NCBI GenBank assembly: GCA_013316045.1
Contig: WSNJ01000012.1
Location: 1 to 32,841, forward strand
Source of the DNA: Clostridia bacterium
GTDB taxonomy: Bacteria; Bacillota; Clostridia; Christensenellales; Pumilibacteraceae
DNA length: 32,841 nt
Direction of reading: 5' to 3'
The translations under genes were made by a program, and so were the position numbers. The notes beneath the pieces are model-generated. The model was not told the origin of the DNA, made no database searches, and saw only the letters and a program-made list of their open reading frames with translations. Positions within the stretch are counted from its first letter, which is position 1; every line of letters starts with the position of its first letter. Below, in pieces: positions 2,955 through 32,752 of this stretch.

Positions 2955-2956
2955 TG

Positions 2957-4896: not shown

Positions 4897-4923
4897 ATTT
4901 TTTGTACCTCCTTGTTAGAATAA

Positions 4924-13774: not shown

Positions 13775-13794
13775 ACCAACCTCGCATAAAAAAA

Positions 13795-13844
13795 TATACT
13801 TACGTATATACGCAAGTATATCATTTTTTATATTAAAATGTCAA
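13795..13844 (-). promoter_or_regulatory. dndBCDE promoter with 26-bp palindromic operator
   Basis: On the minus strand TTGACA (13844-13839), an 18-nt spacer ending in TGA (extended -10) and TATACT (13820-13815). The plus-strand segment 13795-13820 is a 26-bp palindrome with a single mismatched pair. It begins at the -10 and extends over the start of transcription, so a bound repressor would block transcription. The preceding operon shows no terminator, so read-through into dndB is also possible. Confidence 0.75.
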
Positions 13845-13870
13845 TAACAAATTACCATAAAATCAAATTT

Positions 13871-14395
13871 TTATAGCAAATCATCCTCACCAATATCATC
13901 TTCAGATATGCCGTCTATCTCATAGTTATATCCCTCTATTGTTGACGCCAAAAATGACTTAATCTTTTGCATGGCTTCAATAGGATCATCGCTTCCCTGC
14001 TCTAACAATTTACTCACACCAAAATTCGCATACTTTGTGAGAAACTCAAGTTTAGCAAACTTAATTTCAGATGATGGATTAAATGCTAAATCCATTCGCT
14101 GTTCTTCATTAAAGGTTACAAGCGACGTCGTTAATATGGCAGACTGAAATAGGAAATCCAAATCAGTATTATGCGGATGCAAAACAGTTCTCGGAACACT
14201 TGCTCGATTATCCTTTTCCTCGGGCGTTTCCTCCCCCGCTATTTCCACTTGTCTATCATACATTATGCCAATAGAAATACTGATTGCAAAGATGCTGTAA
14301 TTAGGCTGTAAAGTTTGCGGGAAAAACGGCGAGAAAAGATCAAGAGCTTTTCGCCAATTACTACCTTTAAGAATGACGTCTGTCGTTATTTCCAT
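13871..14395 (-). CDS. Unrecognised 174-aa protein of the putative effector operon
   Basis: No family recognised. The N-terminus (MEITTDVILKGSNWRKALDL) and centre look like a compact alpha/beta domain, and the C-terminus is strongly acidic (EDDIGEDDLL). Its ATG lies within the end of the ATPase gene (10-nt overlap), so the pair is made together and may form a complex, as DndE follows dndD in the neighbouring operon. It is the last gene before the dndB promoter. It is soluble, without cysteine motifs or nuclease signatures that I can see. Confidence 0.75.
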   Translation of the reverse strand: MEITTDVILKGSNWRKALDLFSPFFPQTLQPNYSIFAISISIGIMYDRQVEIAGEETPEEKDNRASVPRTVLHPHNTDLDFLFQSAILTTSLVTFNEEQRMDLAFNPSSEIKFAKLEFLTKYANFGVSKLLEQGSDDPIEAMQKIKSFLASTIEGYNYEIDGISEDDIGEDDLL

Positions 14396-16338: not shown

Positions 16339-16489
16339 CTTTCATCACCTGCTCTAATTCAGAAATGATTGTTTTGGCAACGGCTTTTCTGTCCGATGGC
16401 TTTGACTCGTTAAAGTCCTGTTTGGATTTTTCTCTAACGACCGTTTCAACCCTTTTTTTCATTTCTTCAATTATTTCATTATTAGTCAT
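16328..16489 (-). CDS. 53-aa micro-protein between helicase and ATPase genes
   Basis: The frame begins MTNNEIIEEMKKRVETVVRE and ends IISELEQVMKDEN. It is helical, highly charged and without cysteines. Its ATG lies inside the helicase stop region (GGATGACTAA, overlap of 8 nt), and its 3' end overlaps the ATPase start by 11 nt. It fills the only gap in an otherwise gapless operon. Overlaps on both sides on the same strand favour a real, co-translated subunit. A helical linker or regulator of the helicase or ATPase is possible; no homologue is known to me. Confidence 0.7.
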   Translation of the reverse strand: MTNNEIIEEMKKRVETVVREKSKQDFNESKPSDRKAVAKTIISELEQVMKDEN

Positions 16490-18530: not shown

Positions 18531-18532
18531 AT

Positions 18533-21346
18533 TTACTCCAAATCATCGTAATCGAAAGAATCTAAAATATCTTCGTCATTATTATCAAACTGTTCCGAGT
18601 CGCCTTGATCCATTTCGGCTAAAGCACCAAAATCAATATTGGACTCATCGAAACCTTGTCGCACTAAAATCGGTTTTGCCTCATTAAGATAATTAGACGT
18701 TAATGCTAATTTGAATTCTTTTGAATACTTCTTAATAACGCTATACAAAAGCCATGTATTCCATAAACAAGCTAAATCCGGCAATTCTCGGTAATTATAA
18801 AAATCCGACAGTAACTTATACGGCTCTTCTCCAATGAAATCCTCCAAGACAGCATCCAATCTCGAAAAATCCACTTCATCAAGTCCAACTGCGTTTACAG
18901 AAATAATAGTTTCTCTGTTCTTAAATATGAAGGCGTCATTATTCCTATCTATAAACTCTATATATCGTTCTATAGTAGTCCCGACTTCCTTTGCAAACTG
19001 CCTAATATTGGCTATGCTACACTCTTCATACTGCATTATCAAGTTAATAACTTGAGCTTCGCCGCTGATCACTTCAACGCCCAAAGCGCCAATAAACGGT
19101 CTGTTATATTCGTATTCATTAGGGAATATTTCTCGAAGCAAGTAAAAGAATTGCAAATAGTGATTTACACCAACCCTATTAAATAGTCCCGATAAACTAC
19201 CCCTAATTCTTGAAAATACAATATTGGCGTGATGAATTTCCCTATCTCTCAATTCATTATCTACTGCGTACTTTAACGAAGAAATTTCATCGTCAGTTAT
19301 CTCTAAATTATCAAGATGAACGTAATACCCATTCATATTTATAACTTTAGTTGCCGCCGCCATCTGTTGTATAACAATTTCCGTTGCGCCCGGAAAATTA
19401 CTTTGAATATCCCTCTTGGTTACGGGAAAAGCAGATTGCTTAACAAAGGCCTCAATAACGCTATAAAACGTATCACCGGTACTTTTCATCACATAATCAC
19501 GATTGATAGAATATTCGTTAGGCAAGATTTTTTTCAACTGACTATGCAATGAATATTTATTATAAATTTCAATTTCACCAAGTTCAGCGCTGAACTTATC
19601 CATTATTGCTTGAATAGGTAAAACAGGCGAATTATATTGCTTTATGTAATCAAGGATTGCGACTTGCAGTTCATTAGAAATAAGAACTTGCTCGGTATCA
19701 TATTTCCAAACGCCGCGAGCGACCATGACACAAAAAGCCTGTAACCTTGCGCGCACGGCTCTATTGTTATCAGCCAATTCAAAACCATCAAACTCCATGT
19801 ATGCCTTTTCGCGCAAGAAATCTATATTAGCATCTTCATATATATCCATTCCATCTGGGAAGTATTTTTGCATTAAGAAAGACAATATGACTTTAAGGGT
19901 TATTCTGTTCTTTGCAATATACTCACCGTAAATCCTATACTTACTGCAAATCAAATCAGTAATTTCATTTGCGGTAAAAGCATTATTCAATTTCTCGGAT
20001 ATTAGAATACTATACTCTTGAAGATCTGTTTTAGTAAATTCATTTGGAAGCTCTTCCAAACAGAAATCAAGTTTATCTTTTGAATCTCTGCTAAAAAAGC
20101 AAGCGCTGTATCCACTTTCATAAAAAACATCGCCCGTTGTCTTGTCAAGAAATATAGCAACATTAGCGCCTAAACCCAATTCCTCTAATTCGGAAATAGT
20201 AATATATGATTTATGCGGACTAAATAATTTTAATTGAGATACTAAAGCAATTCTGAATTTATTTCTTTTGGGCGACAGCATTCCTCTAATAGCCTTTGAC
20301 TCAACCTGCCGTATCCTCTCTCTTGAAACATTACAAATTTCACCAACGCTTTCTAAAGTAAGCAACTGCCCTTCCAAATATCTTTTTTTAAGGACATAAT
20401 ACTCACGCGGCGCCAACTTATTTATCCACGAATTGAAAATATCAATGGGTAGAGCGGTATTGACCTGCTGTAATGCGCTATAAATCTCAAACATCTCTTG
20501 AGTGGATATATAAATCGGCGAGCGTTCTAAAAAGTCAGCGAGATTATAAATGCTTGATTGATTACATTTTTCAACTATACTTTTATCGTTTATAAATCTT
20601 TCAATCTGCACTTCAGCAAAATGCACATTCAAACTGTCAATATAATGCCTTGTCCGCATTAAACAGTTTTCTTTTTCCAACACACTAAAAAGCTCATCTG
20701 CCGCATTGATAATTGCATAATAGAAATCGCCAGCCAAATCGCCATCTAAACACTGAACTGAATCGCTATTATATCTATGAACAACTTCCACATTGCTCGC
20801 ATCCAATTTTAACTCGGAATTGCTATGTAATTCCTCGCCGGAATTACAAATAGATAATACATTATTCTGATCTATATTTAATGACGCCCACTCTGCTGCT
20901 TCACTAAATATAGATTTCACCGAAAATAAGTTACTTTCAATCTTTATACTATTTGTTTCGCCAATAATTACTTCTTCTTCCGAAATTAAACGTATGCGTA
21001 AAAAATACTCCTCTGTAAACCGAGAAATAGTTTCTACGGGTTCATCACTCACTTCAACAAGTTCTTCTTTACTATCCCTTTCCTCGACAATAAAGCAAAT
21101 TGGACCATCATACCATTCATCATTCAAAAAGCAAAAGGCTCGTTGCAAATCACACATACGATAACCTTGCTTCAAGCACTCCAAATATATTGATGACGTA
21201 TCAGCATCATGCGGACTGTAATATAAGGATTTAAGAAGTTCGACAAAACTATGAGTCCGTAAAAGGCTCATAAAGTATTCATCTACTATTCCATTGTCCT
21301 GCATTGACGATAATTTCTCGTCATACAGAGTTTCAAAATCCTGCAT
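18533..21346 (-). CDS. 937-aa protein with sigma-70 region 4 HTH and multiple helical segments
   Basis: At residues about 305-360 is a near-perfect sigma region-4 motif: LAPREYYVLKKRYLEGQLLT, then ESVGEICNVSRERIRQVESK-A. Around it are hundreds of helical residues; several segments look like winged-helix modules (around 620-690 and 740-850). The end is very acidic (DNNDEDILDSFDYDDLE). No region 2 and no enzymatic motif are visible, so it is not a sigma factor in the usual sense; DNA recognition or RNA polymerase interaction are the obvious options. ATG at 21346 with GAGAGG 5 nt upstream. It lies 24 nt after the WYL gene and 2 nt before the helicase gene, so it belongs to their operon. I know no characterised defence protein with this architecture. 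Confidence 0.8.
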   Translation of the reverse strand: MQDFETLYDEKLSSMQDNGIVDEYFMSLLRTHSFVELLKSLYYSPHDADTSSIYLECLKQGYRMCDLQRAFCFLNDEWYDGPICFIVEERDSKEELVEVSDEPVETISRFTEEYFLRIRLISEEEVIIGETNSIKIESNLFSVKSIFSEAAEWASLNIDQNNVLSICNSGEELHSNSELKLDASNVEVVHRYNSDSVQCLDGDLAGDFYYAIINAADELFSVLEKENCLMRTRHYIDSLNVHFAEVQIERFINDKSIVEKCNQSSIYNLADFLERSPIYISTQEMFEIYSALQQVNTALPIDIFNSWINKLAPREYYVLKKRYLEGQLLTLESVGEICNVSRERIRQVESKAIRGMLSPKRNKFRIALVSQLKLFSPHKSYITISELEELGLGANVAIFLDKTTGDVFYESGYSACFFSRDSKDKLDFCLEELPNEFTKTDLQEYSILISEKLNNAFTANEITDLICSKYRIYGEYIAKNRITLKVILSFLMQKYFPDGMDIYEDANIDFLREKAYMEFDGFELADNNRAVRARLQAFCVMVARGVWKYDTEQVLISNELQVAILDYIKQYNSPVLPIQAIMDKFSAELGEIEIYNKYSLHSQLKKILPNEYSINRDYVMKSTGDTFYSVIEAFVKQSAFPVTKRDIQSNFPGATEIVIQQMAAATKVINMNGYYVHLDNLEITDDEISSLKYAVDNELRDREIHHANIVFSRIRGSLSGLFNRVGVNHYLQFFYLLREIFPNEYEYNRPFIGALGVEVISGEAQVINLIMQYEECSIANIRQFAKEVGTTIERYIEFIDRNNDAFIFKNRETIISVNAVGLDEVDFSRLDAVLEDFIGEEPYKLLSDFYNYRELPDLACLWNTWLLYSVIKKYSKEFKLALTSNYLNEAKPILVRQGFDESNIDFGALAEMDQGDSEQFDNNDEDILDSFDYDDLE

Positions 21347-21370
21347 TCAATCCTCTCATTGTTACTTGTG

Positions 21371-22366
21371 TTAATCGACTGTGTACATAGTTGAAAGCGT
21401 TTGCAAATATTCTATAAATTGATTTTTAAGCTCTCTTGGCGCAACGATTTTCAATTTGTCGCCAAAGCTACAGCACCAACCGAAAAACATATTGCTTATT
21501 TGCACTTCGGCTGAAAACTGAATTTTATTATCGCCCAGATCGGCTATCTTGGTTTTCTCACCGAACTTATCGAAAATGACATCTATTAAATCGGAAGTCA
21601 TTTCAAATGTTACTTTTTGCGTTTCACCGCTAAACATTGAAAAGGCTTGCTTGCGGCTATCCGAAATATCTATGCCTTTTGGTCTTGCTTCTTTATTTAT
21701 GGGTGCATCGAGCATATCGACTTCCGTCATACGGTCTACACGATAGTTCGTTAGCGTTTTATGGTTATCGTGATAACAGACAAGATAATAGTTATCGTTA
21801 GAGAAAACCAATGTTACGGGATTTGCAACGTAACGGTGTCCGTCCTTGCGAAATACTCTCTCGCCGTGCAAATCATAATCGAAATACTTGAATATGATTT
21901 TCTTTTCGGACAATATTGCTTCGTCTATCTTATCAATACTGTAATAAATGTTTTCGTTTGTATGCTTGGTTGTGTTGAATAAAACGATATTCCTTTTCAA
22001 CAGTTCGGCACGATTACTACCGCCGAGCGCCGAAATCTTGTCTATAAACTCGGCTGTCTTTTTTTCGGTAACAAAACTTGCAGCTTGCACTGCGTCCATT
22101 AAGATACGGAGTTCTGGAACGTCAAAGTTACGGTCTATTACATAGTAGGAATTGTTGTGTTGTCCTCTGCGCTGTATAATCTCATACCCGTAGGCATTGA
22201 GCGTTGCTATATCTTGGTAAAGGGTTTTGCGGTCGCACTCTATCCCTACCGCATTTAATTTCTCTATTATTTGATTGGTCGTCAAAGGATGCTGTTCGTC
22301 AGTGTCCTGTTTCAGCATCTCCCAAATCTTTAATAATTTAATTTTAGAAAAATTCTGTTTTCCCAT
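21371..22366 (-). CDS. WYL-domain (YafY-type) transcriptional regulator, 331 aa
   Basis: N-terminal winged helix (residues about 8-75: LLKIWEMLKQDTDEQHPLTT, then the RKTLYQDI recognition helix). The WYL domain (about 140-230) has NYRVDRM and YLVCYHD motifs, and a C-terminal WCX-type extension follows. WYL proteins sense ligands, including nucleic acids or nucleotides, and related WYL repressors (BrxR/CapW type) control phage-defence islands. It heads the operon that continues into the sigma-like, helicase and ATPase genes, 24 nt apart, with no promoter seen in between. The predicted transcript starts only about 2 nt before the ATG and has no ribosome site, so the mRNA would be leaderless. Confidence 0.9.
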   Translation of the reverse strand: MGKQNFSKIKLLKIWEMLKQDTDEQHPLTTNQIIEKLNAVGIECDRKTLYQDIATLNAYGYEIIQRRGQHNNSYYVIDRNFDVPELRILMDAVQAASFVTEKKTAEFIDKISALGGSNRAELLKRNIVLFNTTKHTNENIYYSIDKIDEAILSEKKIIFKYFDYDLHGERVFRKDGHRYVANPVTLVFSNDNYYLVCYHDNHKTLTNYRVDRMTEVDMLDAPINKEARPKGIDISDSRKQAFSMFSGETQKVTFEMTSDLIDVIFDKFGEKTKIADLGDNKIQFSAEVQISNMFFGWCCSFGDKLKIVAPRELKNQFIEYLQTLSTMYTVD

Positions 22367-22374
22367 ACGAAATC

Positions 22375-22403
22375 ATTATAACAAATTATTCGACAAAAAT
22401 CAA
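22375..22403 (-). promoter_or_regulatory. Promoter of the WYL/effector operon
   Basis: TTGATT (22403-22398), a 17-nt spacer, and TATAAT (22380-22375) on the minus strand. The -10 ends only 8 nt before the ATG at 22366, giving a leaderless transcript for the regulator. It probably drives all six genes down to 13871. Confidence 0.7.
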
Positions 22404-22480
22404 GGGTGTAATGTCCAAAAAATAAGACAGCAAAACAAATCAGTGTAACTTTTATTGGACAGCACTTCACGGCGAAGCGG

Positions 22481-22677
22481 TATTCGTCTTTCGACATGGT
22501 TTTGTGTCCGAAAACGCCTTTGCCGTCAAAGGTAGAAAATATTACTTAAAATTTTAATCAAGCAAGATTATAGCGTAATATTTTCTACTACTCTTTGACG
22601 GACTTACCTACAATCATATAAGTTGCTTTTGACAAAGCCATTTCCGGACTTCTCCGTTGTTCGTCGAAAGACGAATA
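22481..22677. repeat. 197-bp long-range inverted repeat in the divergent intergenic region
   Basis: The gap 22367-22776 has no gene. Outer arms of 15 bp match perfectly (22481-22495 and 22663-22677, TATTCGTCTTTCGAC and its complement). Inner arms match over 23 bp (22523-22545 with 22575-22601), interrupted by a 4-nt bulge, with a 29-nt A/T-rich loop. Weak pairing connects the two. The nested symmetry suggests a structured RNA, a recombinase binding or attachment site, or a small MITE-like insertion. It lies between two divergent promoters, so it is not a normal terminator. Confidence 0.7.
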
Positions 22678-22706
22678 AGAAAAGGTTGTTGAGAGGTAAA
22701 AAAATA

Positions 22707-22747
22707 TTTCTAATAGGAAAAAAACCTTCCTATTAGGTATTTAGAAT
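22707..22747 (+). promoter_or_regulatory. Promoter/operator block of the recombinase genes
   Basis: 22707-22734 is an exact inverted copy of 7537-7564. Here the dyad is longer: 10-bp arms CTAATAGGAA/TTCCTATTAG with a 7-nt spacer (22710-22736). A TAGAAT box (22742-22747) follows the shared block by 7 nt, the same spacing as at 7524. AAAGGAG and the ATG at 22777 follow. It is probably bound by a dimeric regulator, perhaps the HTH protein at 7159-7488. Confidence 0.65.
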
Positions 22748-22776
22748 TTCCTCAAAAGCAAAAAGGAGTGTCAAAA

Positions 22777-23157
22777 ATGAAGAAAGCAGTTATCTACACT
22801 TGTCATCTCGAAGGGCGCATAAGCGAACCCGACAATGCGATGCAAGAACAGTTGTGCAGAGAATATGCGCAACAACACGGAATCGAGGTCGTCGGCTTTT
22901 ATATGGATTGCGTGCCGAACAAACGTCAGCCGTTGTTTATGAAACAGCAGTTACTTGACGATTGTAAAAATCACGATTGGGATATGGTTATATTCCCGTC
23001 CCTTTCGATTTTAGGGCGCAAAGTAAACGACAATATGAAGTTCTTGTCGCAACTTTCCAAGCACGTCAAATACAAAGTTGTCGATCAAGAAAACGATCCG
23101 TTTTTAAGAGAAGTCGGAAGAATACTTGAATTATTGTATAAGGCAGGTCAAAGATGA
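22777..23157 (+). CDS. Catalytically dead serine-recombinase N-domain protein, 126 aa
   Basis: MKKAVIYTCHLEGRISEPDN aligns with the start of the next protein (MKTAVIYARFSSDRQTEQS). The catalytic Ser11 is Leu here and Arg9 is Cys; the later DRFSR motif (LDRFSRN) has become SLSILGR. The rest keeps the resolvase fold pattern (QEQLCREYAQQHGIEVVGFY, DWDMVIFPSLS) and stops at the point where the recombinase domain would start. So it is not an enzyme; it may be an accessory or directionality partner of the large recombinase. I use the ATG at 22777 (AAGGAG 8 nt before) and not the GTG at 22768. Its TGA overlaps the ATG of the next gene (ATGA). Confidence 0.8.
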   Translation: MKKAVIYTCHLEGRISEPDNAMQEQLCREYAQQHGIEVVGFYMDCVPNKRQPLFMKQQLLDDCKNHDWDMVIFPSLSILGRKVNDNMKFLSQLSKHVKYKVVDQENDPFLREVGRILELLYKAGQR

Positions 23158-24716
23158 AAACAGCAGTTATCTACGCAAGATTTAGTAGCGATAGACAAAC
23201 GGAACAGTCTATCGAAGGACAAGTTCGTGTATGTAACGACTACGCCGAAAGAAACGATATTCTAATCGCCAGTCAGTACATAGACCGAGCAACGACGGGT
23301 ACAAACGATAATCGTGATGCCTTCCAGCAAATGATGAAAGACAGCGACAAAAAGGCTTGGGATTACGTTCTTGTTTACAAGCTCGATAGATTCTCTCGTA
23401 ATAAGTTTGAAATGGCTATGCACCGCAAGCATCTCAAAGATAACGGGATAAAAATTCTATCCGCTATGGAAAACATACCAGATACCCCCGAAGGCATCTT
23501 GCTTGAAAGCCTTTTGGAAGGTATGAACCAATATTACAGCGAGGAGTTAGCGCAAAAGACCAGACGCGGACAACGAGAAACCCGACTTAAAGGACTGCAT
23601 TGCGCTGGCAAACTTAATTACGGTTACTACACCGAAAAGAAAAAAGTATTTATCCACGACGAAGAAGGTCCGATAGTCAAAGAGATATTTGAAAGGTACG
23701 CTGCCGGTGAACGTGGTAACGAAATTGCTATCAGTTTTGCCAAGCGCGGTATTCTCTATCGTGGTAAGCCGTTCAGTGCAGCGAACATATATGTAATTCT
23801 TCACGGCGAGAAATACACAGGTAAATACGAGTTGCACGGCGAAGTTTACGACAATATCTATCCGAGAATTATCGAGCCAGAACTTTACGAGAAATGCAAG
23901 CAAAAGATTGATGCCAACCGTTACGGCAATCATATCCCCGACTACTCCTACCTACTCCGACACAGAGTTTATTGTGGCAAGTGTGGAACGAGAATGACAT
24001 CATACAGCGGAACGTCGAAGTCTGGACGTGTCAATAAATACTATAAGTGTTGGAACGCTGTCAGCAAGAAAAACTGCGATGCAAAATTCATTAAGAAAGA
24101 CTACCTCGACACAGTTGTAATTAAAACCCTACAAGACACTTTGACGGGTAAAAACCTTACCGTAATCGTGGACGAAATCTATAAACAGCATAACGCCAAG
24201 CTGATGAGCGAAAACACCGTCAAACTACTTGAAAAGGAATTGACGCAGATCAACAAGTCAATAAGCAACATTATGCGAGCGATTGAGCAAGGCATTATAA
24301 CGGACACCACAAAAGAGCGATTACAAGAGCTTGAAAAGTCAAGGCAAGAGTTACAAGAGAAACTGATATTCGAGCGACTGCAGGAGCAAACCGTTTTAGA
24401 CAAGGAAACAATCGCAACGTACTTACAAGACGGTATTAAGCAAGAACCCGAAATGATGATTGAACTACTCGTCGAAAAAGTATTCGTGCATAGCGACCAC
24501 ATAGAAATCATACTCCACTACGTTGACGAACCGATAAAGACAAAACCCCGAATAGACGATAAAGAAGAAAGCCTCGAAGGAACTGACCTTCGGGGCGTTC
24601 TTATTTTTACGGCAATGACTTGGGTGGACGAGTTTTGGTGGAAAGGATTAAAGAAAAAAGACCTTGAGCCAAAACTCAAGGAAACCCGTAATATGCTTGT
24701 ATATATAGAAATATGA
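23154..24716 (+). CDS. Large serine recombinase (site-specific integrase), 520 aa
   Basis: N-terminal resolvase domain (about 1-150) with catalytic Ser11 in YARFSSDRQ and Arg-containing LDRFSRN. The recombinase domain (about 160-265) follows, with LNYGYYTEKK, then a zinc ribbon (CGKCG near 275 and the CWNAVSKKNC pair near 300), then a long coiled-coil (about 350-430). This is the large-serine-integrase family that inserts elements by attP x attB recombination. It is expressed from the shared-block promoter, coupled to the dead paralogue. The last about 50 residues follow a terminator-like hairpin (24571-24608) inside the frame, so the true gene may once have ended earlier. It lies about 55 nt from the broken end of the TIR/LRR gene, as expected for an integrase next to an attachment site. 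Confidence 0.95.
   Translation: MKTAVIYARFSSDRQTEQSIEGQVRVCNDYAERNDILIASQYIDRATTGTNDNRDAFQQMMKDSDKKAWDYVLVYKLDRFSRNKFEMAMHRKHLKDNGIKILSAMENIPDTPEGILLESLLEGMNQYYSEELAQKTRRGQRETRLKGLHCAGKLNYGYYTEKKKVFIHDEEGPIVKEIFERYAAGERGNEIAISFAKRGILYRGKPFSAANIYVILHGEKYTGKYELHGEVYDNIYPRIIEPELYEKCKQKIDANRYGNHIPDYSYLLRHRVYCGKCGTRMTSYSGTSKSGRVNKYYKCWNAVSKKNCDAKFIKKDYLDTVVIKTLQDTLTGKNLTVIVDEIYKQHNAKLMSENTVKLLEKELTQINKSISNIMRAIEQGIITDTTKERLQELEKSRQELQEKLIFERLQEQTVLDKETIATYLQDGIKQEPEMMIELLVEKVFVHSDHIEIILHYVDEPIKTKPRIDDKEESLEGTDLRGVLIFTAMTWVDEFWWKGLKKKDLEPKLKETRNMLVYIEI
24571..24608 (+). terminator. Terminator-like hairpin inside the 3' end of the recombinase ORF
   Basis: GCCTCGAAGG and CCTTCGGGGC (24571-24580 and 24587-24596, one G-U pair) with a 6-nt loop, followed by GTTCTTATTTTT. 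It looks like a rho-independent terminator but lies 120 nt before the stop codon. Confidence 0.5.
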
Positions 24717-24780
24717 TGGAAAAACGGCTAAAAACGATGAAAAATAGGCTTAAAAGGTGTTCTAACGAGGTTAAGCAAAC
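24717..24780. other. Inferred right boundary of the mobile element
   Basis: The recombinase stop is at 24716 and the giant TIR/LRR gene's stop at 24771, convergent and about 55 nt apart. The LRR gene ends abruptly after the AFA of a repeat (SIGANAFA), where an intact protein would continue with G/D-C-x-x-L. This fits integration within that gene, with the junction near 24770-24776. No direct repeat can be matched because the left end lies outside the window. Confidence 0.4.
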
Positions 24781-27700
24781 GCATTAGCACCGATACTCAT
24801 TACACTGCTCGGTATTTCTATGCTCGTCAATTTACCACAATTCTCGAACGCACTACTCCCGATACTCGTTACGCCGCTCGGTATCTCTATACTCGTTAAT
24901 TTACTGCAACCACGAAACGCATAGTCCCCTATACTCGTTACACTGCTCGGTATAGTTAGATTTCCCGTAATAGTTAGCGGCACATATACAATCTCGGTTT
25001 TAGCTTTATTATACAATATCCCGTCTTGACTACTGTAATTTTGATTATTGTTATCTACCGTTATGCTCATTATACTATTGCAATTATAGAATGCACTTCT
25101 TCCGATACTCGTTACACTGTTCGGTATCTCTATGCTCGTTAAGCTACTGCAACCGCTGAACGCATAGTCCCCTATACTCGTTACACTATACGACACTCCA
25201 TTATATGTTATCTCACTCGGTATGACAATTGTTCCCATAATATTTGTAGTCCATTGTCTTATCTTAGCTAATCCGTCTTTGAAACCATAATGAAATTTGT
25301 CTACTATCCCGTATTCATATCCATTCTCATCTTTTTTATTATTCTTGCAATCCCATATTGTAGTACAATCCTCATCCCAACTGTATCCCCACTCGAACGG
25401 CCTTCTTTTTTCTTCGCAATATATTATCAACATATAGCATTCATTGAACGCATAATTCCCGATACTCGTTACGCTGTTCGGTATCTCTATACTCGTTAAA
25501 TTACTGCAACCCCAAAACGCCCCATAACCAATACTCGTTATATCGTTCGGCATAGTTACACTAATCAAACCATAGTGTTTGTAAAACGCCTTATCGGCAA
25601 TACTTATAACTTTTTTATCATCAACATAAGACGGGATTTCAACGTTTGATTTCGTCCCATTATATTTAACAATAGTTATTTCTTCCGTTCCCGAATATTC
25701 AAAATCAGTATGCCAAACGGCATATAAATCATAATTAGGTTCAATTCCCATTTTATATTTTGTTTCATTATCATACGCCTTACTACCGTTTGCACTCGTC
25801 GCCCAGCCCGCGAATTCGTAACCGTTTCGAGTAAACGTATTCTCATTCAAATTTACGGTTGCGTCGGTTGCTATCCTTTGTTGCGACATATTTCCGTCGC
25901 CGCCGTTTGCGTGGAAAGTTATAGTGTTTATATTTGCAATCCAAGTAGCGGTATAAACGCGGTTGCCCGTGTTGCCTTTTGCTACCGTAACCGAATTTTG
26001 CGCGCCGCTTAACCCCGTTCCCGTCCAACCCGCAAATGCATAGCCTGCGCGCGTGGGATTTACGAGCGTAAACGCATTGGATTCTATATTGTATTGCGTC
26101 GGGTTGCCGCTTACACTGCCGCCGCCGAGATTATATTCAATCGCATAAGTTTTAAGAGTCCAGAGTGCATATAACGTATAACTGCTTTCCACACCCATTT
26201 TATAGCTTGCGCCGTTGTCGTATGCTTTATTGCCGTTTGCGCTCGTCGACCAACCTGCAAAATCATAGCCCGTTCTGACGAAACCATTCGCTTTTAAGTT
26301 TGCCGTAGCGTCAGTCTTTATTTTCTGCGCCGTCATACTGCCGCTTCCGCCGTTAGCGTTAAAAACAATTTCGTTTTCGTTCGGCGTCCATACGGCATAA
26401 AGCAAGTTGAAAGAATTCGTACCCATTTTATATTCTGCGCCGTTGCTATACATAACGCTTCCGTTTATGCTCGCAGACCAACCGGCAAACGAATAGCCTT
26501 TTCTTTCAAAGGCGTTGACGGTAAGTTTGGCACTCCGATCCGTACAGATTATTTGCGCGCTCATACTGCCGCCCGTCGCGCCGTTGCCGTCGAATACTAT
26601 TCTGTTTTCGTTTGCCGTCCAATGCGCGTCAACCGAACACTTGCCCGGATATTTCCAAACGCCGACAGACTTTCCTTGCGAATCCGTCAGTTTTTCTTCT
26701 CCGCGATACCAACCGTCAAAAGAATATCCGTCTCTTTCGGGAACGGGGAAAGTATAGTTTTGCTCATATCCGACATACATCTCCGAAACGGTATTGTTCG
26801 CAGTCGCGCCGTTGTAATTGAACGTAATCGAGCCTGCATAAACAATGGCGGCGTTATTTCCGCCGTTCCAATCTTCGTGCCAAGCCGACGGTATATCCAA
26901 AAAGCCCGCCAATGAAATAATTTGAAGATTATCGCAGTCGGCAAACGCATTGCGTCCTATATATTCAACAGAATTCGGAATAACGATTTCGGCAATAGCC
27001 GTTCCGCAAAACGCTTCGTCGTCTATGCGAATCAGATTACGCGGCAAAATCACCGTTTGCAATTTACCGCATTTTGCAAAAGCTCTCGCGCCGATTTTCG
27101 TTACCGTGTCGGGAATAACGAATTCCGTAACTTTATCGAAGTTTTCGAATGCGCCGCTCGAAATTTCGACAACGGGTTTACCGTTATACTCACCCTGAAT
27201 CTCGAATTTGCCCGATACGTTTTTATGATAGTATTTTCCAGCTTTTACGGCATAGCCGCCGTCAACCGCCGTATATTTAAGCCGATTTTCGCTTTTGTGA
27301 TATAGAACGCTACCCGTTATTATCGCGCTTATAACAAGCACTATCGCAAGCGCCAAACTCGTTATTTTTAATATCCGTTTACGCTTGCGCGCCGCTATGT
27401 CCTTTTTGCGTTTTTCTTCTATCCACGCTTTTTGCTTGTTTTGCACGTCGATATAATGCGCCATTGCCGCGCTGTTGTTCGCGGACGCCAAAAGCGCATT
27501 CTGAAATTCTCTGTATTCGGATATTACATCGGGTTGCCCGATAAGTTCTTCGTCCGACTTACAATGCAACTTAGATTGCAAAAGTCCCCAATACGCCGTA
27601 TGATCGTCGGCGTTCATATCGACGCTCATTGCAAAATATCTTTCGGAATACGAGAAATATCCCTTAATCAGACATATCCGCGCAACGGTGTACACGTTGA

Positions 27701-30092
27701 GCAATAATTTTTCGTCGTATTCTTTCGGAATATATTGCAACAGTTTTTCGAAAACGTCAAACACTTTATTCGGCACGGAATCGGATTTTTTGATATTTTC
27801 CGCACACGCGTGCAAAAGCGTTTCCAAAAAAGTCATACGTTGCGCTTCGTTTTCGTACAAGGAAAACAGTTCTTCCAAAGTATTGAAATTCGATAAATTC
27901 CCGATAAATGCGGAAAGATTTTCCGTTGCTCCGCATCCGATTTCGGCATAAAACTTGCCGATATAATCCGGAATATCGTCCTCGCCGTATTCTATCGCTT
28001 TATCGTAGTATTTTATTGCCAAAGCGAACAAATTGCGTTTACGCGCGCTTTCGGCAAAAGAATAGTAGCAATCGGCGTGCTTTTCGAAATCTCCTTGCGC
28101 GAAATACGCCACGGCTCTTTCAAAGAATTCACCGCCGTTTTCCGACGCGCTTTGCACGCTTTTTTCAATCGCCTGCGACAGTATCGCATCGCGGCTCACA
28201 AATTTGTATTTGCCGAAAATTTCCAACCAACCCGAAGCAAAATCGTATCTGTTTTCGTCGATAGCTTTAACGCAACGCTCGCCGCAAATATGCAAAAACT
28301 TCAATGCCGACGGTTCATCGGCTTGTATAAGCGTATTTTCTATGTCGCCGAAAAGACCGTTTCTTTCCGCATATTCGAAAACGAAATCGTCCGACTCGGT
28401 TTTGTATTTCAATTTAAGTTCGCCAAGCTTTGTGAAAAAATCGGCGACGGCTATTTCGGAAAGCTGTTTTAAGTATTCGCTCGCCGCATCGAAAATTTTT
28501 ACTCGCAAACATTTATCGAATATCTTTTTCAGCTTGTCGATATATTCCGCATTATTTTCTTCGTACAAAATAGCCGTATCGATAAAATATTTGCTCATAT
28601 CGAACGGGAATTTCGTTATTGCGTCCTCGAAAAGTTCGTTTCTCAGTCTTGCGACGGTTTCGTTCTTAAACGACTGTATTTGCTCGTATAAAACTTTCGC
28701 TTTGTCATATTCGGCGGCAACATACAAATTCTCTATTTCACCGCATACGGCAAGCAAAATCTCTTCGGCATCGTTTTTCGACGCATAAGCCAATACTTTT
28801 GACAGAAGATCGGTATCGTCGAAACCGTGCACGCCCGTTTGAACGAATTCACGAATATTTTTACACCGCGCTTTCGCCAACAATTTGCCCAAAAGCGCAT
28901 TGCCGTTATCCGGACTGCTTGTGAGAAAATCGCCGAACGACTTGCCCGCTTCGTCGAATGCGCCGCTTTGCAAATATGCGTATGCGATTTTCAACAGCTT
29001 TTCGGCATTCGCGGTAAGTTTCGCTACGGTATAATTGCCTATTTCGCGTTTTTCTACGTTTTTTCTTTGAGATTGACCCCCCCCCGAGTTATTGCGAATA
29101 TCGGAAATTTCGAGAATATCCAATCTCGCCGCCGCAACTTTGCTTTTTTCGACTCGCTTTTTAATTTCTCTTCTTTCTATATGCGGCACTTGGGTTTTCG
29201 CCGCTTTTACTACTCGCGCAACATAAGCGTCTAAATCGTGCAAAAACGTAAGACTGTTTCTGTCTATACATTGCACGGACGAAAGCGGACGCGACAGTTC
29301 GCTCGGATTAAAGCCTTTGTACGCTACGATAAGCGCATTGCTTTGCTTTTGTCCGCTCTTTATGCGCTTGTAGAATCTCGACCACTCGTTCTTTATCCAC
29401 GTGGATTCTATGTATTCCGTTTTGCTCCCGAATACGATCATTACGTGCGCCGTGTTCAGCGCGTTGAATATGTACGGTTCGTATTTTTCGCCCGCTTTGT
29501 CTTTCAGCGATTCGCGGCTGTAAAACACCCTGTATCCGAGCGACTGCAAATGAGTATATAACTCAAACGCTTCGTGGCTGTCCTCGGTCCGCTCTACTCC
29601 GTTTTCAAGTTCCGTATCCTTATACGAAACAAATATGTCGTAAGGCTGTTCTTTCGATGCCTTTTCGACCCACTCTTTTCGTATCTTTTCTATCTTCTCG
29701 GCTTGCGTTTCGTAATATTTGCGGTTGTCTTTGTTCGCCAAGTCAAGCGCTCGCAGATAATCTTTATCCCCGAGTATGCTGTCGTAGCTCGTCGCATAGC
29801 ACGTGGGGATCATTTTCCCGTCGTAGTCCTGCTCGTACTTTATGCCGTACTTAGCAAGCACCAATCCCCAATATCCCTCGCTGTTTTGCGGATACTTGCG
29901 GATTATATCCCGATACGCCTCTTCCGCGTCGTCGAACGCGTTCAGCCGTAGTTTCTGCGCGGCATTATACAACAGAGTAACTTCTTCGTTCGAAAGTTCC
30001 TCTTCCTTGTACGCTCCGCAAGCGGGACATTTCCACTTCCCGTCTGCGTATTCATAATTCGCTCCGCATATATTGCAAATATTCCGACTCAT
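24771..30092 (-). CDS. Giant zinc-ribbon/TPR/TIR/transmembrane/LRR protein, 1773 aa, probably 3'-truncated
   Basis: Order of domains: zinc ribbon (C6, C9, C22, C25); helical TPR-like segment (about 35-130); TIR domain (about 151-290; YDIFVSYKDT, and W232-x3-E236 placing the catalytic glutamate for NAD hydrolysis); low-complexity linker with a G9 tract (about 338); TPR-like repeats (about 365-890); one transmembrane helix (about 905-930); LRR_5 block (about 960-1070); several Listeria-Bacteroides repeats (about 1090-1420; GYxFxGW); second LRR_5 block to the end. TIR and TPR would be cytoplasmic and the repeats outside. The protein stops in mid-LRR without a C-terminal domain, next to the recombinase. 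It is the last gene of the XRE-SPFH operon. TIR enzymes usually cleave NAD+ or make signals in immunity. The start has no good ribosome site. Confidence 0.9.
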   Translation of the reverse strand: MSRNICNICGANYEYADGKWKCPACGAYKEEELSNEEVTLLYNAAQKLRLNAFDDAEEAYRDIIRKYPQNSEGYWGLVLAKYGIKYEQDYDGKMIPTCYATSYDSILGDKDYLRALDLANKDNRKYYETQAEKIEKIRKEWVEKASKEQPYDIFVSYKDTELENGVERTEDSHEAFELYTHLQSLGYRVFYSRESLKDKAGEKYEPYIFNALNTAHVMIVFGSKTEYIESTWIKNEWSRFYKRIKSGQKQSNALIVAYKGFNPSELSRPLSSVQCIDRNSLTFLHDLDAYVARVVKAAKTQVPHIERREIKKRVEKSKVAAARLDILEISDIRNNSGGGQSQRKNVEKREIGNYTVAKLTANAEKLLKIAYAYLQSGAFDEAGKSFGDFLTSSPDNGNALLGKLLAKARCKNIREFVQTGVHGFDDTDLLSKVLAYASKNDAEEILLAVCGEIENLYVAAEYDKAKVLYEQIQSFKNETVARLRNELFEDAITKFPFDMSKYFIDTAILYEENNAEYIDKLKKIFDKCLRVKIFDAASEYLKQLSEIAVADFFTKLGELKLKYKTESDDFVFEYAERNGLFGDIENTLIQADEPSALKFLHICGERCVKAIDENRYDFASGWLEIFGKYKFVSRDAILSQAIEKSVQSASENGGEFFERAVAYFAQGDFEKHADCYYSFAESARKRNLFALAIKYYDKAIEYGEDDIPDYIGKFYAEIGCGATENLSAFIGNLSNFNTLEELFSLYENEAQRMTFLETLLHACAENIKKSDSVPNKVFDVFEKLLQYIPKEYDEKLLLNVYTVARICLIKGYFSYSERYFAMSVDMNADDHTAYWGLLQSKLHCKSDEELIGQPDVISEYREFQNALLASANNSAAMAHYIDVQNKQKAWIEEKRKKDIAARKRKRILKITSLALAIVLVISAIITGSVLYHKSENRLKYTAVDGGYAVKAGKYYHKNVSGKFEIQGEYNGKPVVEISSGAFENFDKVTEFVIPDTVTKIGARAFAKCGKLQTVILPRNLIRIDDEAFCGTAIAEIVIPNSVEYIGRNAFADCDNLQIISLAGFLDIPSAWHEDWNGGNNAAIVYAGSITFNYNGATANNTVSEMYVGYEQNYTFPVPERDGYSFDGWYRGEEKLTDSQGKSVGVWKYPGKCSVDAHWTANENRIVFDGNGATGGSMSAQIICTDRSAKLTVNAFERKGYSFAGWSASINGSVMYSNGAEYKMGTNSFNLLYAVWTPNENEIVFNANGGSGSMTAQKIKTDATANLKANGFVRTGYDFAGWSTSANGNKAYDNGASYKMGVESSYTLYALWTLKTYAIEYNLGGGSVSGNPTQYNIESNAFTLVNPTRAGYAFAGWTGTGLSGAQNSVTVAKGNTGNRVYTATWIANINTITFHANGGDGNMSQQRIATDATVNLNENTFTRNGYEFAGWATSANGSKAYDNETKYKMGIEPNYDLYAVWHTDFEYSGTEEITIVKYNGTKSNVEIPSYVDDKKVISIADKAFYKHYGLISVTMPNDITSIGYGAFWGCSNLTSIEIPNSVTSIGNYAFNECYMLIIYCEEKRRPFEWGYSWDEDCTTIWDCKNNKKDENGYEYGIVDKFHYGFKDGLAKIRQWTTNIMGTIVIPSEITYNGVSYSVTSIGDYAFSGCSSLTSIEIPNSVTSIGRSAFYNCNSIMSITVDNNNQNYSSQDGILYNKAKTEIVYVPLTITGNLTIPSSVTSIGDYAFRGCSKLTSIEIPSGVTSIGSSAFENCGKLTSIEIPSSVMSIGANAFA
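24786..25560 (-). repeat. 69-bp LRR_5-coding repeats
   Basis: Several imperfect units of about 69 bp (23 residues), each beginning near ATACTCGTTAC on the plus strand and containing CTCGGTATCTCTAT; many share long identical runs. They encode C-x-x-L-T-S-I-E-I-P-x-x-V-T-S-I-G units. The near identity points to recent expansion or conversion. Confidence 0.8.
29077..29085 (-). repeat. G9 homopolymer inside the TIR gene
   Basis: A run of nine C on the plus strand (nine G in the coding strand) encodes part of NNSGGGQ, between the TIR domain and the TPR region. A slip of one or two bases would shift the frame and cut off the TPR, membrane and LRR parts while leaving the TIR domain intact. Confidence 0.85.
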
Positions 30093-30132
30093 CAGTTTTT
30101 ACCCGAGTTTTTTTTTAATCTTTTAATCTCGA

Positions 30133-30717
30133 TTATATAATTCTGTTCTTTTCCGCTTCGATTTCGGCAGATAAATCGAGCCCCGAAGTTTCGGGCATAG
30201 ATACACCGCTCATTTTCGCGCGAGCGGCATCGATCATAGGGCGAACCGAAGCAATTTCCGCATCGCTTCGCGCTCTGTTGGCGGGATTCGATGTTTTCAT
30301 TGCTCCGACCATTGCTTTTTGCGAAATTTTCATATTGCGCATATATTTCGCCATTTTGGCGTTTGCTTTCTGTATCTTGCGGATATCCGGAAGCTGCGAT
30401 TTGCCGCTTGCCATAGAATCGAGCGCCGCCATAGCGGTTGCCATAGTCATTGCGATGGAATTAGATACGTTTATAATATCGAAATTCGCTTTCGTTTGCA
30501 TAAGCGCGCTTATAACGTCGTTAAGCTCCATAAGCGCATTCAGCGCAACGTCGTAAGTCCCCGTATCGCCGTTGATTTCCGCTTCCGCCGCAATCTTGGC
30601 ATACTCTTCGCGCTTTTGCTTTAACGTGTTGATTTGCTCGTTGAATTTTTCAAGCTGCTCGTCGCGCTCCATCTGCGCCATAATTTCTTTTTCCTGCTTC
30701 GTCTTAAAAAATGCCAT
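30133..30717 (-). CDS. Coiled-coil protein with ESCRT-III/Snf7-like layout, 194 aa
   Basis: Basic/charged N-terminal helix (MAFFKTKQEKEIMAQMERDE), a long helical hairpin, then a methionine-rich segment (MAALDSMASGKSQLPDIRKI, then NAKMAKYMRNMKISQKAMVG) reminiscent of the CHMP/Snf7 core, and an acidic C-terminal tail. Length fits ESCRT-III proteins (about 200 aa). They polymerise on membranes to bend or repair them; bacterial relatives include PspA/Vipp1 and others in conflict systems. The assignment rests on layout and composition, so a generic coiled-coil protein is the alternative. It lies 5 nt after the 335-aa gene and 40 nt before the TIR gene. Confidence 0.7.
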   Translation of the reverse strand: MAFFKTKQEKEIMAQMERDEQLEKFNEQINTLKQKREEYAKIAAEAEINGDTGTYDVALNALMELNDVISALMQTKANFDIINVSNSIAMTMATAMAALDSMASGKSQLPDIRKIQKANAKMAKYMRNMKISQKAMVGAMKTSNPANRARSDAEIASVRPMIDAARAKMSGVSMPETSGLDLSAEIEAEKNRII

Positions 30718-30722
30718 TTTTC

Positions 30723-31730
30723 TCAGCCCTCCGTATCGATTTTCGTTTTAGCGTCGTTCGACTTTGCAATGTCTTCGCTTGCACTCGCCAACGCTTCTTT
30801 CTCGCGCTTTTTGCGCATAAGCTCTTCTTTGTATTTCATCGCGTCGTCGCTGACGGTTGCCGCTCCGCTGTCGAGCCCGAACACTTTGCTGTCGAGCGTT
30901 GCCGTGCGCTCCGAAATGGTTTTGATTTCGGCGTCCATACGTTTGAGAATCACAACCGCCTTATCCGGTTCCGTCAATACTTTTTTCAATCTGTCGATAT
31001 TAAGCAACGCTTTCGCTTTGCTTATTTCTTCCGCCGCAAAATCTGTTGCTTGCAGAATTTCTTTTGCGTTTGCGAAAATCATATCCAAAAGATTATAACA
31101 AGCCGAATAATTATTCTGACGCACCGTAAGCATATCTATTTTGCTTTTTACCGCTTTTACGTTACGGAACAGTTCGTTTATTTTGCGCTCGTTGTTTTCG
31201 TCCAACATAGCGTTTTCGTATTCTGAAAGATCCTTTTCCAATGTGCGAACTTCTTTATCGAGCCGTTTACCGTTCTCCGCGAAACTTTGCTTTATATCCG
31301 CAAGCTCGTCCAAACGGGCGTCCAATTTTCTGCGACTTCGGCTTATTTTTGCCTGCCGTATTTCTTCCGGCGTTTCCATTACGGCGTTGCCGTCCAGCAC
31401 GTCTTTCCAAAGTCCGATAGTATAGAACAATTCGTCGGCGGCACTTTCGAAACGGTGCGTCATAGGTTGCTCGATTTGCTTTTTCAATTCTTTCAACTGT
31501 TCTGCCGCGTCGTTTGCCAACAATTCGATATTCTCCGAACCCGTGCATACGCTGTTTTCCAACATATCTGTCAAAGTCTTTAATTGTTCCGTAATGCTTA
31601 CAACCGTATCTTTATCAAGCTCGACGTTACCCTTGCCCTTATCCAAACGATAAGCGACGGCTTTCAACTCGTTTACGATATCATCGCGCAAAGCATTGTT
31701 ATTTTTAACCGACGGAATATATTTTTTCAT
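30723..31730 (-). CDS. Long coiled-coil protein, 335 aa
   Basis: Almost entirely charged heptad-like helix (for example KLDARLDELADIKQSFAENG and RTLEKDLSEYENAMLDENNE), without membrane segment or nucleotide-binding motif. MKKYIP start at 31730, 12 nt after the SPFH gene and 5 nt before the 194-aa gene. A filament-forming or membrane-associated scaffold is likely given its neighbours; PspA/Snf7-like relationship is possible but not shown by any motif. The specific role is unknown. Confidence 0.7.
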   Translation of the reverse strand: MKKYIPSVKNNNALRDDIVNELKAVAYRLDKGKGNVELDKDTVVSITEQLKTLTDMLENSVCTGSENIELLANDAAEQLKELKKQIEQPMTHRFESAADELFYTIGLWKDVLDGNAVMETPEEIRQAKISRSRRKLDARLDELADIKQSFAENGKRLDKEVRTLEKDLSEYENAMLDENNERKINELFRNVKAVKSKIDMLTVRQNNYSACYNLLDMIFANAKEILQATDFAAEEISKAKALLNIDRLKKVLTEPDKAVVILKRMDAEIKTISERTATLDSKVFGLDSGAATVSDDAMKYKEELMRKKREKEALASASEDIAKSNDAKTKIDTEG

Positions 31731-31742
31731 TATTTCGCTCCT

Positions 31743-32396
31743 TTATCCGTTAATCCTGTTTCTGATAAGTTCCAAATCTTCTTCGTTGACGTGAATCCCG
31801 TCGACCGTAAGATCTTTTAATTTTAACCCAAGCTCGCCGAATACGCTTTCCGACGAAAGCGCTTTTATAAGAGCTTGTCGCAGTTCGTCCGTATGTGCGG
31901 ATATTTCGAATACGGATATATCGGTAGCCGCAAAATACTTTCCCAAAAGCGTCGTACCGACCGTTCTGAGAACGCCGACGGTTTTTTCGCGCAACATATC
32001 GAGGGTTATATTCTCTTCCGTATCGAAACAGCGCATCAGTTTTCCCGTTTCCGCGATTTCCACGCTGTATTTTCCGTTTGTTCCAACGCGGTACGCCTCT
32101 TTCAGACGCTCGTTGTTAACCTGAATATTTCCGAATCCCCACATCATATTCGGCAACAGTTTCGTTCTTACAAACGCTACTCTGCATTCTTTGCCTATAT
32201 ACTCTTTGCCCGATTCCGAAATCTTTTTCGGAGCTCCGGCATTTATGCGAAACGCTATGTTTTCATCCGCAAACACAAGCGCACGATATCCGTTCGGCAC
32301 TTTTATCGCCGTCGCTTTATCCGCAATAAACGTATCCGTAAATTGCACAATTACGTTTTCGTCCGCTATCATCGGTTCCAATACGATTCCTTTCAT
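31743..32396 (-). CDS. SPFH/Band 7-like protein, 217 aa
   Basis: Sequence fits an SPFH core: early strands YRALVFADENIAFRINAG, middle VAFVRTKLLPNMMWGFGN, a helical region, and the closing LGLKLKDLTVDGIHVNEEDL motif, followed by the ELIRNRI end typical of Band 7/YdjI-type proteins. SPFH proteins assemble rings or scaffolds at membranes. There is no N-terminal transmembrane helix, so it would rely on partners or membrane binding. Its ATG overlaps the TGA of the XRE gene by 4 nt. It lies directly before two coiled-coil proteins and the TIR protein. Confidence 0.8.
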   Translation of the reverse strand: MKGIVLEPMIADENVIVQFTDTFIADKATAIKVPNGYRALVFADENIAFRINAGAPKKISESGKEYIGKECRVAFVRTKLLPNMMWGFGNIQVNNERLKEAYRVGTNGKYSVEIAETGKLMRCFDTEENITLDMLREKTVGVLRTVGTTLLGKYFAATDISVFEISAHTDELRQALIKALSSESVFGELGLKLKDLTVDGIHVNEEDLELIRNRING

Positions 32397-32752
32397 TTGT
32401 TTTCTCCGTTTTTTGTATTTACTAATTTACATATTTCTTCGAGCGTTACATTATCCACTTCGTCTTGCGCCAAAGCCAAAATAACCCGCCGCTTTTTCTC
32501 GCCGAGTTCCGTTAAGTCAATCTTAACTCTGTCTTTCGTAGCAACAAGTGCCTCGCGCAAATTTTCCTGATCTCGCTCAGAAAGATTATACACGCGAACA
32601 ACGTTTTCCGCCATACCGTTGGGAATATCCCGTCTGCCGTTTTCGATAGCATTCAGATACGGCGCGGAAATTTCCAATTTCTCCGCCATCTCTTTTGCAC
32701 TGTCCCCCGAGTTTATTCGTATTATCCTTAAAACTTTGCCGAATTCGGTCAT
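32393..32752 (-). CDS. XRE-family HTH regulator, 119 aa
   Basis: N-terminal XRE helix-turn-helix: FGKVLRIIRINSGDSAKEMA, EKLEISAPYLNAIENGRRDI. The C-terminal half is acidic and helical. It is the first gene of the TIR operon; its ATG at 32752 has AGAGGT upstream. The dyad AGTAT-AAC-ATACT over the -10 box is a likely autoregulatory operator. It probably controls the whole five-gene operon. Confidence 0.85.
   Translation of the reverse strand: MTEFGKVLRIIRINSGDSAKEMAEKLEISAPYLNAIENGRRDIPNGMAENVVRVYNLSERDQENLREALVATKDRVKIDLTELGEKKRRVILALAQDEVDNVTLEEICKLVNTKNGENK

What the first reader, a model, noticed from the sequence alone, without database searches (positions are those of the whole stretch)
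24771..32752. XRE-SPFH-coiled coil-Snf7-like-TIR operon: possible membrane-surveillance defence system
Five genes with gaps of 40 nt or less combine a membrane scaffold (SPFH), an ESCRT-III-like polymer and a TIR enzyme with TPRs, a membrane helix and an extracellular LRR head. One could imagine membrane damage or surface contact triggering TIR-driven NAD loss.
Basis: inference. Interest (0 to 1): 0.72.

Follow-up and report, generated by a model that had tools for sequence, protein, structure and literature searches.

The report
Bacterial ESCRT-like operon with TIR gene
A group of gut and digester Clostridia carries a conserved gene cluster pairing a membrane-bending machine resembling the one our own cells use to cut and repair membranes (ESCRT) with an enzyme-type domain known from immune cell-death proteins (TIR), a combination I could not find described and whose function is still untested.

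Summary
XRE, SPFH, 335-aa, 194-aa and zinc-ribbon/TIR/TPR/TM/LRR genes lie on one strand with gaps of -4, 12, 5 and 40 nt. The neighbours are conserved in 12 named Clostridia-type MAG loci. The 194-aa family belongs to the ESCRT-III/Snf7 superfamily: 9 of 33 members hit Pfam Snf7 (one above cut-off), the best profile match in the PDB is Asgard ESCRT-IIIB, and the helix order is ESCRT-III-like. In 34 of 37 sampled loci a MIT-like plus AAA (Cdc48/Vps4-class) ATPase gene lies close by; in the window's genome it sits on another contig with a zinc-ribbon/trypsin-like protease. So this looks like a bacterial ESCRT-III/Vps4-like module with an SPFH scaffold and often a TIR arm. TIR genes cluster with it far above chance (20 of 70 versus 0.6 expected). 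The family is patchy (33 of 297 genomes of the order) and nearly absent outside it. Defence by NAD loss remains inference. The catalytic-type Glu is kept in 26 of 31 TIRs, the LRR head is not system-wide, and the window's TIR gene is probably truncated beside a serine-recombinase element carrying Dnd/Pbe genes.

The parts
32393..32752 (-). XRE-type HTH protein, first gene, probable regulator
   Evidence: HTH_31 39.2 bits, HTH_3 35.6 bits; a near-identical gene opens several related operons, e.g. L088, L090, L095, L099
31743..32396 (-). SPFH / Band-7 protein, 217 aa, no TM helix
   Evidence: Band_7_1 39.2 bits against cut-off 24; SPFH gene in 32 of 37 sampled loci
30723..31730 (-). 335-aa all-helical protein: N-terminal four-helix region (8-112), then a long helical hairpin (121-177, 181-227) and further helices
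   Evidence: AlphaFold mean pLDDT 82; Foldseek inconclusive; P335 found in 8 of 37 sampled loci and in all 12 named loci
30133..30717 (-). 194-aa ESCRT-III/Snf7-superfamily protein; helices 3-49, 52-103, 112-141, 152-170, 183-193
   Evidence: fold; family profile to Asgard ESCRT-IIIB, CHMP2A and CdvB; relatives hit Pfam Snf7
24771..30092 (-). Zinc ribbon - TPR - TIR (E236) - TPR - TM - BspA-type LRR / Flg_new protein, 1773 aa; probably 3'-truncated
   Evidence: domains; catalytic-Glu alignment; TM; one search aligns it to residues 2-1734 of a 1907-aa relative
22768..24716 (+). Two serine-recombinase-family genes abutting the 3' end of the TIR gene; not part of the system, probably the edge of an inserted element
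   Evidence: Resolvase/Recombinase/Zn_ribbon_recom; ORF ends 54 nt from the TIR stop codon

Best explanation
The five genes are the front half of a bacterial ESCRT-like membrane-remodelling operon with a TIR arm. SPFH and the ESCRT-III-type proteins would assemble on the inner face of the cell membrane. The MIT-like-AAA ATPase, which in this genome lies on another contig, would pull on and recycle the ESCRT-III polymer. The membrane-anchored zinc-ribbon/TPR/TIR protein would report on this assembly: when envelope damage (for example phage entry or attack by a competitor) makes a large or persistent assembly, clustered TIR domains would cleave NAD and stop growth. Shown here: the genes, domains, fold class, conserved linkage and retained catalytic-type Glu. 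Inferred: localisation, polymerisation, ATPase action, trigger, NADase activity and defensive purpose. I put about 0.8 on the ESCRT-III + MIT-like-AAA + SPFH identity and about 0.4 on TIR-driven defence as the purpose.
For: Linkage: 34 of 37 ESCRT-III-like loci have the AAA gene nearby, 32 SPFH, 18 a same-strand TIR, 16 SPFH+AAA+TIR; 12 of 12 named loci keep P335, ESCRT-III-like and AAA genes, 11 of 12 SPFH (the twelfth is cut by its contig end), and all 12 have a TIR, in L099 upstream. TIR_2 domains lie within 8 kb of the ESCRT-III-like gene in 20 of 70 cases against 0.6 expected; the largest of 200,000 simulations was 6. ESCRT-III identity: 9/33 members hit Pfam Snf7, L069 at 34.0 bits over the 27.3 cut-off; the profile's best PDB match is Asgard ESCRT-IIIB over its whole length, E 0.0026; fold, TM 0.49/0.56 to Asgard ESCRT-IIIB. 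ATPase: MIT, AAA, AAA_lid_3 and Vps4_C matched in that order in L065; Vps4_C in 15/21; best single-AAA PDB chain is archaeal Vps4/CdvC, aligned from the MIT region to the end. TIR: catalytic-type Glu in 26 of 31. Patchy, accessory distribution: 33 of 297 genomes of the order. Parallel: in B. subtilis an SPFH protein (YdjI) and two membrane proteins recruit the ESCRT-III homolog PspA (PMC8581546).
Against: No experiment. The window's own 194-aa protein has no Pfam Snf7 hit, its model is only medium confidence (pLDDT 67) and no Foldseek match passes E 0.001. The MIT match is below Pfam's cut-off (24.6 vs 30 bits), and the C-terminal part of the AAA is closer to p97/Cdc48 D2 than to Vps4. The MIM1-like tail common in the wider family is missing in the window's subfamily. 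TIR was not detected on the same strand in 19 of 37 loci, and five TIRs have lost the Glu, so NAD cleavage cannot be the universal output. None of these proteins matches a specific defence system in PADLOC. The window's TIR gene may be broken.
Confidence: 0.5

Rival explanations
1. Envelope-stress or membrane-repair system with no suicide output: ESCRT-III-like, SPFH and AAA proteins patch the membrane, and the zinc-ribbon/TIR/TPR/TM protein is only an anchor and scaffold, like YdjG/YdjH for PspA and YdjI in B. subtilis.
For: YdjI/PspA/YdjGH is a proven SPFH + ESCRT-III + membrane-anchor unit (zinc ribbons of YdjG from PMC11237479). Five TIRs have lost the catalytic Glu. Several loci show SPFH + ESCRT-III + AAA with no TIR detected.
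Against: The Glu is kept in 26 of 31 TIRs across deep divergence, which a pure scaffold would not require. Distribution is patchy rather than housekeeping.
Confidence: 0.3
2. A surface-contact or vesicle/adhesin module: the LRR/Flg_new ectodomain is the business end, ESCRT-like proteins shape or shed membrane, and the TIR tunes it.
For: Large BspA-type LRR ectodomains in the window's subfamily, often around 2000 aa; an associated zinc-ribbon/trypsin-like protease.
Against: The ectodomain is not conserved across the system: many TIR proteins have 0 or 3-5 TM helices.
Confidence: 0.1
3. A cell-division or membrane-scission aid, as Cdv/ESCRT serves in some archaea.
For: In L065 the operon follows a gene whose product is clearly FtsZ; L052 of the same genus shows similar upstream genes.
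Against: The location is unique to that genus among the loci seen; most genomes of the order lack the system, so it is not needed for division.
Confidence: 0.07
4. Chance adjacency of unrelated coiled-coil, SPFH and TIR genes.
For: Coiled-coil proteins give spurious profile matches, and TIR genes are common in these genomes.
Against: Conserved linkage over 37 loci and a large statistical excess.
Confidence: 0.02

Closest known systems
Archaeal/eukaryotic ESCRT-III + Vps4 (Cdv, CHMP/Snf7-VPS4)
   Same: ESCRT-III-type helical protein next to a MIT-like + AAA ATPase; MIM1-like tails in much of the family; SPFH also linked to ESCRT in some archaea (PMC10936438)
   Different: In Bacteria; AAA C-terminus nearer Cdc48 than Vps4; coupled to TIR proteins and a trypsin-like protease; [quoted passage not shown]
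B. subtilis pspA-ydjGHI (PspA/YdjI SPFH system)
   Same: ESCRT-III superfamily protein, SPFH protein, and zinc-ribbon membrane protein in one operon
   Different: Snf7 rather than PspA_IM30 matches; has an AAA ATPase and TIR domains; no TPM-domain protein seen
Bacterial Vps4-like or PspA/Snf7-AAA neighbourhoods of PMC11237479
   Same: Classical AAA ATPases near PspA/Snf7-superfamily proteins in Bacteria have been noted, including two-AAA proteins as in several loci here
   Different: That paper says Snf7 is displaced where Vps4-like genes were transferred to bacteria; no SPFH + Snf7 + MIT-AAA + TIR operon appears in the passages of its main text that were read
TIR-based antiphage systems (Thoeris, SpbK and others)
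   Same: TIR domain with the catalytic-type Glu
   Different: No ThsA-like partner seen in the operon; only weak profile matches to ThcB4 or ThsB; fused to zinc ribbon, TPR, TM and LRR
IetAS (AAA ATPase + protease)
   Same: AAA ATPase with a protease in the same operon; the AAA matches IetA models
   Different: Trypsin-like rather than subtilisin-like protease (the latter from memory); the AAA match is generic, shared with TRIP13; extra ESCRT-III, SPFH and TIR genes

Membership tests
ESCRT-III / Snf7 family (194-aa protein) | Pfam Snf7 profile above cut-off, window protein itself | tested here: not met
   No Snf7 hit at E up to 0.1
ESCRT-III / Snf7 family (wider family) | Pfam Snf7 profile above cut-off in a member | tested here: met
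   L069 34.0 bits vs 27.3; 9 of 33 members at E up to 0.1; Snf7 search of 299 genomes of the phylum gave nothing over the cut-off, and the Sulfolobus acidocaldarius control also falls below it
ESCRT-III / Snf7 family | Long alpha1-alpha2 hairpin followed by shorter helices | tested here: met
   Helices 3-49, 52-103, 112-141, 152-170, 183-193 at medium confidence; ESCRT-III chains give the top Foldseek probabilities and TM-scores, but no E below 0.001
ESCRT-III / Snf7 family | C-terminal MIT-interacting motif | tested here: inconclusive
   MIM1-like spacing in 24 of 42 tails (shuffles mean 1.9, max 6) but absent in the window's subfamily
ESCRT-III / Snf7 family | Polymerises on membranes | not testable with these tools
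   needs biochemistry
Vps4 ATPase (operon partner, not in window) | N-terminal MIT domain | tested here: inconclusive
   L065 24.6 bits vs cut-off 30, aligned over nearly the whole domain; its closest PDB match is VPS4B MIT, E 0.19; the profile of 20 also hits the chitin synthase 1 chain 2mpk (E 2.6e-5) and TPR designs
Vps4 ATPase | Single classical AAA plus Vps4_C | tested here: met
   AAA in 21 of 21, Vps4_C in 15 of 21; L009 24.5 and L065 24.8 bits vs 21.3; some relatives carry two AAA domains
Vps4 ATPase | AAA nearer Vps4 than Cdc48 | tested here: not met
   Lid and C-terminal profile scores best with p97/Cdc48; no phylogeny made. The eukaryotic beta-domain is absent, as in crenarchaeal Vps4 (PMC4686814)
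SPFH / Band 7 | Band-7 domain over cut-off | tested here: met
   39.2 vs 24 bits
TIR NADase | TIR domain over cut-off | tested here: met
   TIR_2 40.2 vs 28 bits
TIR NADase | Catalytic Glu | tested here: met
   E236 in WIKNEW; 26 of 31 aligned TIRs keep it
TIR NADase | NAD cleavage | not testable with these tools
   assay needed
PspA/Vipp1 family | PspA_IM30 profile match | tested here: not met
   Not among the families listed for 33 members; at most one member with E above 0.044 could be unlisted
Known antiphage system | Match to a specific PADLOC system | tested here: not met
   194-, 335-aa and SPFH proteins none or weak; TIR weak PDC-S66; AAA generic IetA/TRIP13; protease generic
Known antiphage system | Protects against phage | not testable with these tools
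   phage challenge needed

The most novel reading that the evidence does not exclude
A previously undescribed bacterial immune-type system in which a true ESCRT-III/MIT-AAA machine on the cell membrane, organised by SPFH, reports membrane damage to TIR NADases: a bacterial link between membrane repair and programmed cell death.
Probability: 0.3. Interest if true: 0.93.

Novelty: new variant of a known kind. Interest (0 to 1): 0.76.

Why it matters
[quoted passage not shown] Here Clostridia carry Snf7-matching ESCRT-III-type proteins beside a MIT-like-AAA ATPase in dozens of loci. If confirmed, this bears on the origin of ESCRT (deep bacterial ancestry or transfer from archaea) and makes it testable with small bacterial proteins. 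The TIR partner would also give a candidate route from membrane sensing to NAD loss, a trigger type not established for bacterial TIR systems to my knowledge.

Tried and rejected
Direct Pfam and NCBIfam scans of the 194- and 335-aa proteins gave nothing useful. A scan of viral contigs found no relatives. Pfam Snf7 over the phylum gave only noise, and the archaeal control also falls below its cut-off, so that profile is insensitive. I tried to claim the 335-aa protein and the second ~200-aa coiled-coil of other loci as further ESCRT-III paralogs: profile-profile comparison did not support it (P 0.08 to 0.4) and Foldseek of the 335-aa model was inconclusive, so I dropped it. I first called the ATPase Vps4; the C-terminal profile is nearer Cdc48, so I call it Vps4-like. 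I considered L099 to lack a TIR, then found one upstream. I looked for the far edge of the element beside the TIR gene: LRR pieces exist on another contig beside a different recombinase, but the link is not proven.

Full report
Observation. The window is a whole 32,841-bp contig of a 1.89-Mb draft genome. On its right end five - strand genes run XRE, SPFH, 335 aa, 194 aa and a 1773-aa zinc-ribbon/TIR/TPR/TM/LRR protein, with gaps of -4, 12, 5 and 40 nt. Pfam confirms HTH, Band_7_1, TIR_2, LRR_5 and Flg_new.

Missing partner. A search of the family found two relatives with the same operon plus two further AAA ATPase genes and a zinc-ribbon/trypsin-like protease. The window's contig lacks these, but contig C16 of the same genome starts with the 372-aa AAA gene and the protease gene in the same order. 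The second, 426-aa AAA gene is absent between the 194-aa and TIR genes here and also in a relative whose 194-aa protein is 90% identical (L051/L090), so it is optional. Physical joining of C10 and C16 is inferred, not shown.

Conservation. A profile of the 194-aa family finds members in 33 of 297 genomes of the order, in 20 of 122 genera; outside the order in the class only two noise-level matches appeared. In 37 annotated loci, 34 have the AAA gene, 32 an SPFH gene, 29 both, 18 a same-strand TIR and 16 all three. Twelve named loci from GTDB genomes (Clostridia-type MAGs, one labelled Elusimicrobiaceae) show the same core. TIR_2 domains over the genomes fall within 8 kb of the ESCRT-III-like gene 20 times of 70 against 0.6 expected, with a simulation maximum of 6. 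The simulation treats genomes as independent and does not correct for relatedness, but the excess spans many genera.

The 194-aa protein. By itself it matches no Pfam family. As a family, 9 of 33 members match Snf7, one above the curated cut-off. The profile's best match in the PDB is Asgard ESCRT-IIIB over its full length (E 0.0026), followed among real relatives by CHMP2A and CdvB. AlphaFold (13 sequences, pLDDT 67) gives the ESCRT-III helix order. Foldseek has no hit below 0.001, as is common for long helices, but Asgard ESCRT-IIIB has the highest probability listed (0.91) and the highest TM-scores listed (0.49/0.56), with CdvB2, CHMP2A, Vipp1 and Snf7 next and BAR/eisosome proteins as competitors. 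In the wider family the last helix carries a MIM1-like spacing in 24 of 42 tails against 1.9 in shuffles, but not in the window's subfamily.

The ATPase. In L065 one protein shows MIT, AAA, AAA_lid_3 and Vps4_C in Vps4 order, MIT being below cut-off. Its first 91 residues hit VPS4B MIT first in the PDB (E 0.19). The family profile's best single-AAA chain is the archaeal Vps4/CdvC, aligned from the MIT region to the end, but the C-terminal profile alone is closer to p97/Cdc48 D2. I therefore write Vps4-like.

The TIR protein. The catalytic-type Glu is retained in 26 of 31 TIRs (24 of about 29 non-redundant) and lost in L055, L057, L058, L059 and L069. Nearly all have an N-terminal zinc ribbon where the start is visible. 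The single TM with LRR ectodomain belongs to the window's subfamily; other members have 3-5 TMs or none. The window's copy ends in mid-LRR about 170 aa before its relative L051, 54 nt from a serine-recombinase gene. The adjoining 9-22 kb carries DndB, PAPS-reductase (DndC-like), DndD-like and PbeA/PbeC-like genes, so an inserted defence island probably clipped it.

Mechanism. B. [quoted passage not shown] By analogy, SPFH and ESCRT-III-like proteins here assemble at the membrane with the TIR protein as anchor and reporter, and the AAA recycles the polymer. TIR clustering would then give NAD loss. Steps after gene content and fold are inference.

Known or new. PMC10936438 holds that combined Vps4 and ESCRT-III systems are limited to archaea and eukaryotes. 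PMC11237479 notes Vps4-like transfers to bacteria without Snf7, and Snf7/PspA with other AAA proteins. None of the ten literature searches over the held open-access library found the SPFH + ESCRT-III + MIT-AAA + TIR operon; most preprints and subscription papers are not covered, so priority cannot be claimed.

Noticed in passing
window 9282-24716: Dnd/Pbe-type phosphorothioation defence genes (DndB 12722-13774, PAPS-reductase/DndC-like 11356-12735, DndD-like 9282-11366, PbeA/PbeC-like 14386-18530) with a WYL regulator and two serine-recombinase-family genes, abutting the TIR gene's 3' end; G+C falls to about 33-39% between 9 and 22 kb.
   Followed up: partly
G000:C64 (L112) 2337-4905: Another serine recombinase next to an LRR-coding remnant resembling the lost 3' end of the window's TIR gene; may be its far half.
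   Followed up: partly
L065 6321-15128: The operon sits directly after ftsZ; L052 of the same genus has similar upstream genes.
   Followed up: partly
L013 7718-9253, L014 12768-14669, L053 10505-12418: ESCRT-III-like domain fused to an FtsK/SpoIIIE-type ATPase domain.
   Followed up: no
L013 11389-14712: TIR - NB-ARC - APAF1_C-like protein with beta-propeller matches, about 0.5 kb after the AAA gene of an ESCRT-III-like operon.
   Followed up: no
L011 3660-5312 and L098 12586-13878: RuvB-type AAA proteins inside these operons.
   Followed up: no
L012, L052, L054, L055, L057-L060, L063-L070, L073: A second conserved ~200-aa helical protein (MWPFKSKYDKL...REDVV) between SPFH and the ESCRT-III-like gene; no Pfam match in the three tested and no provable homology to ESCRT-III.
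   Followed up: partly
genome G059: Twenty TIR_2 proteins in one 2.4-Mb genome.
   Followed up: no
L091: Close relative of the operon in a MAG labelled Elusimicrobiaceae: mislabelled contig or transfer.
   Followed up: no
window 474-2954: 826-aa coiled-coil / Flg_new / LRR_5 surface-type protein.
   Followed up: no
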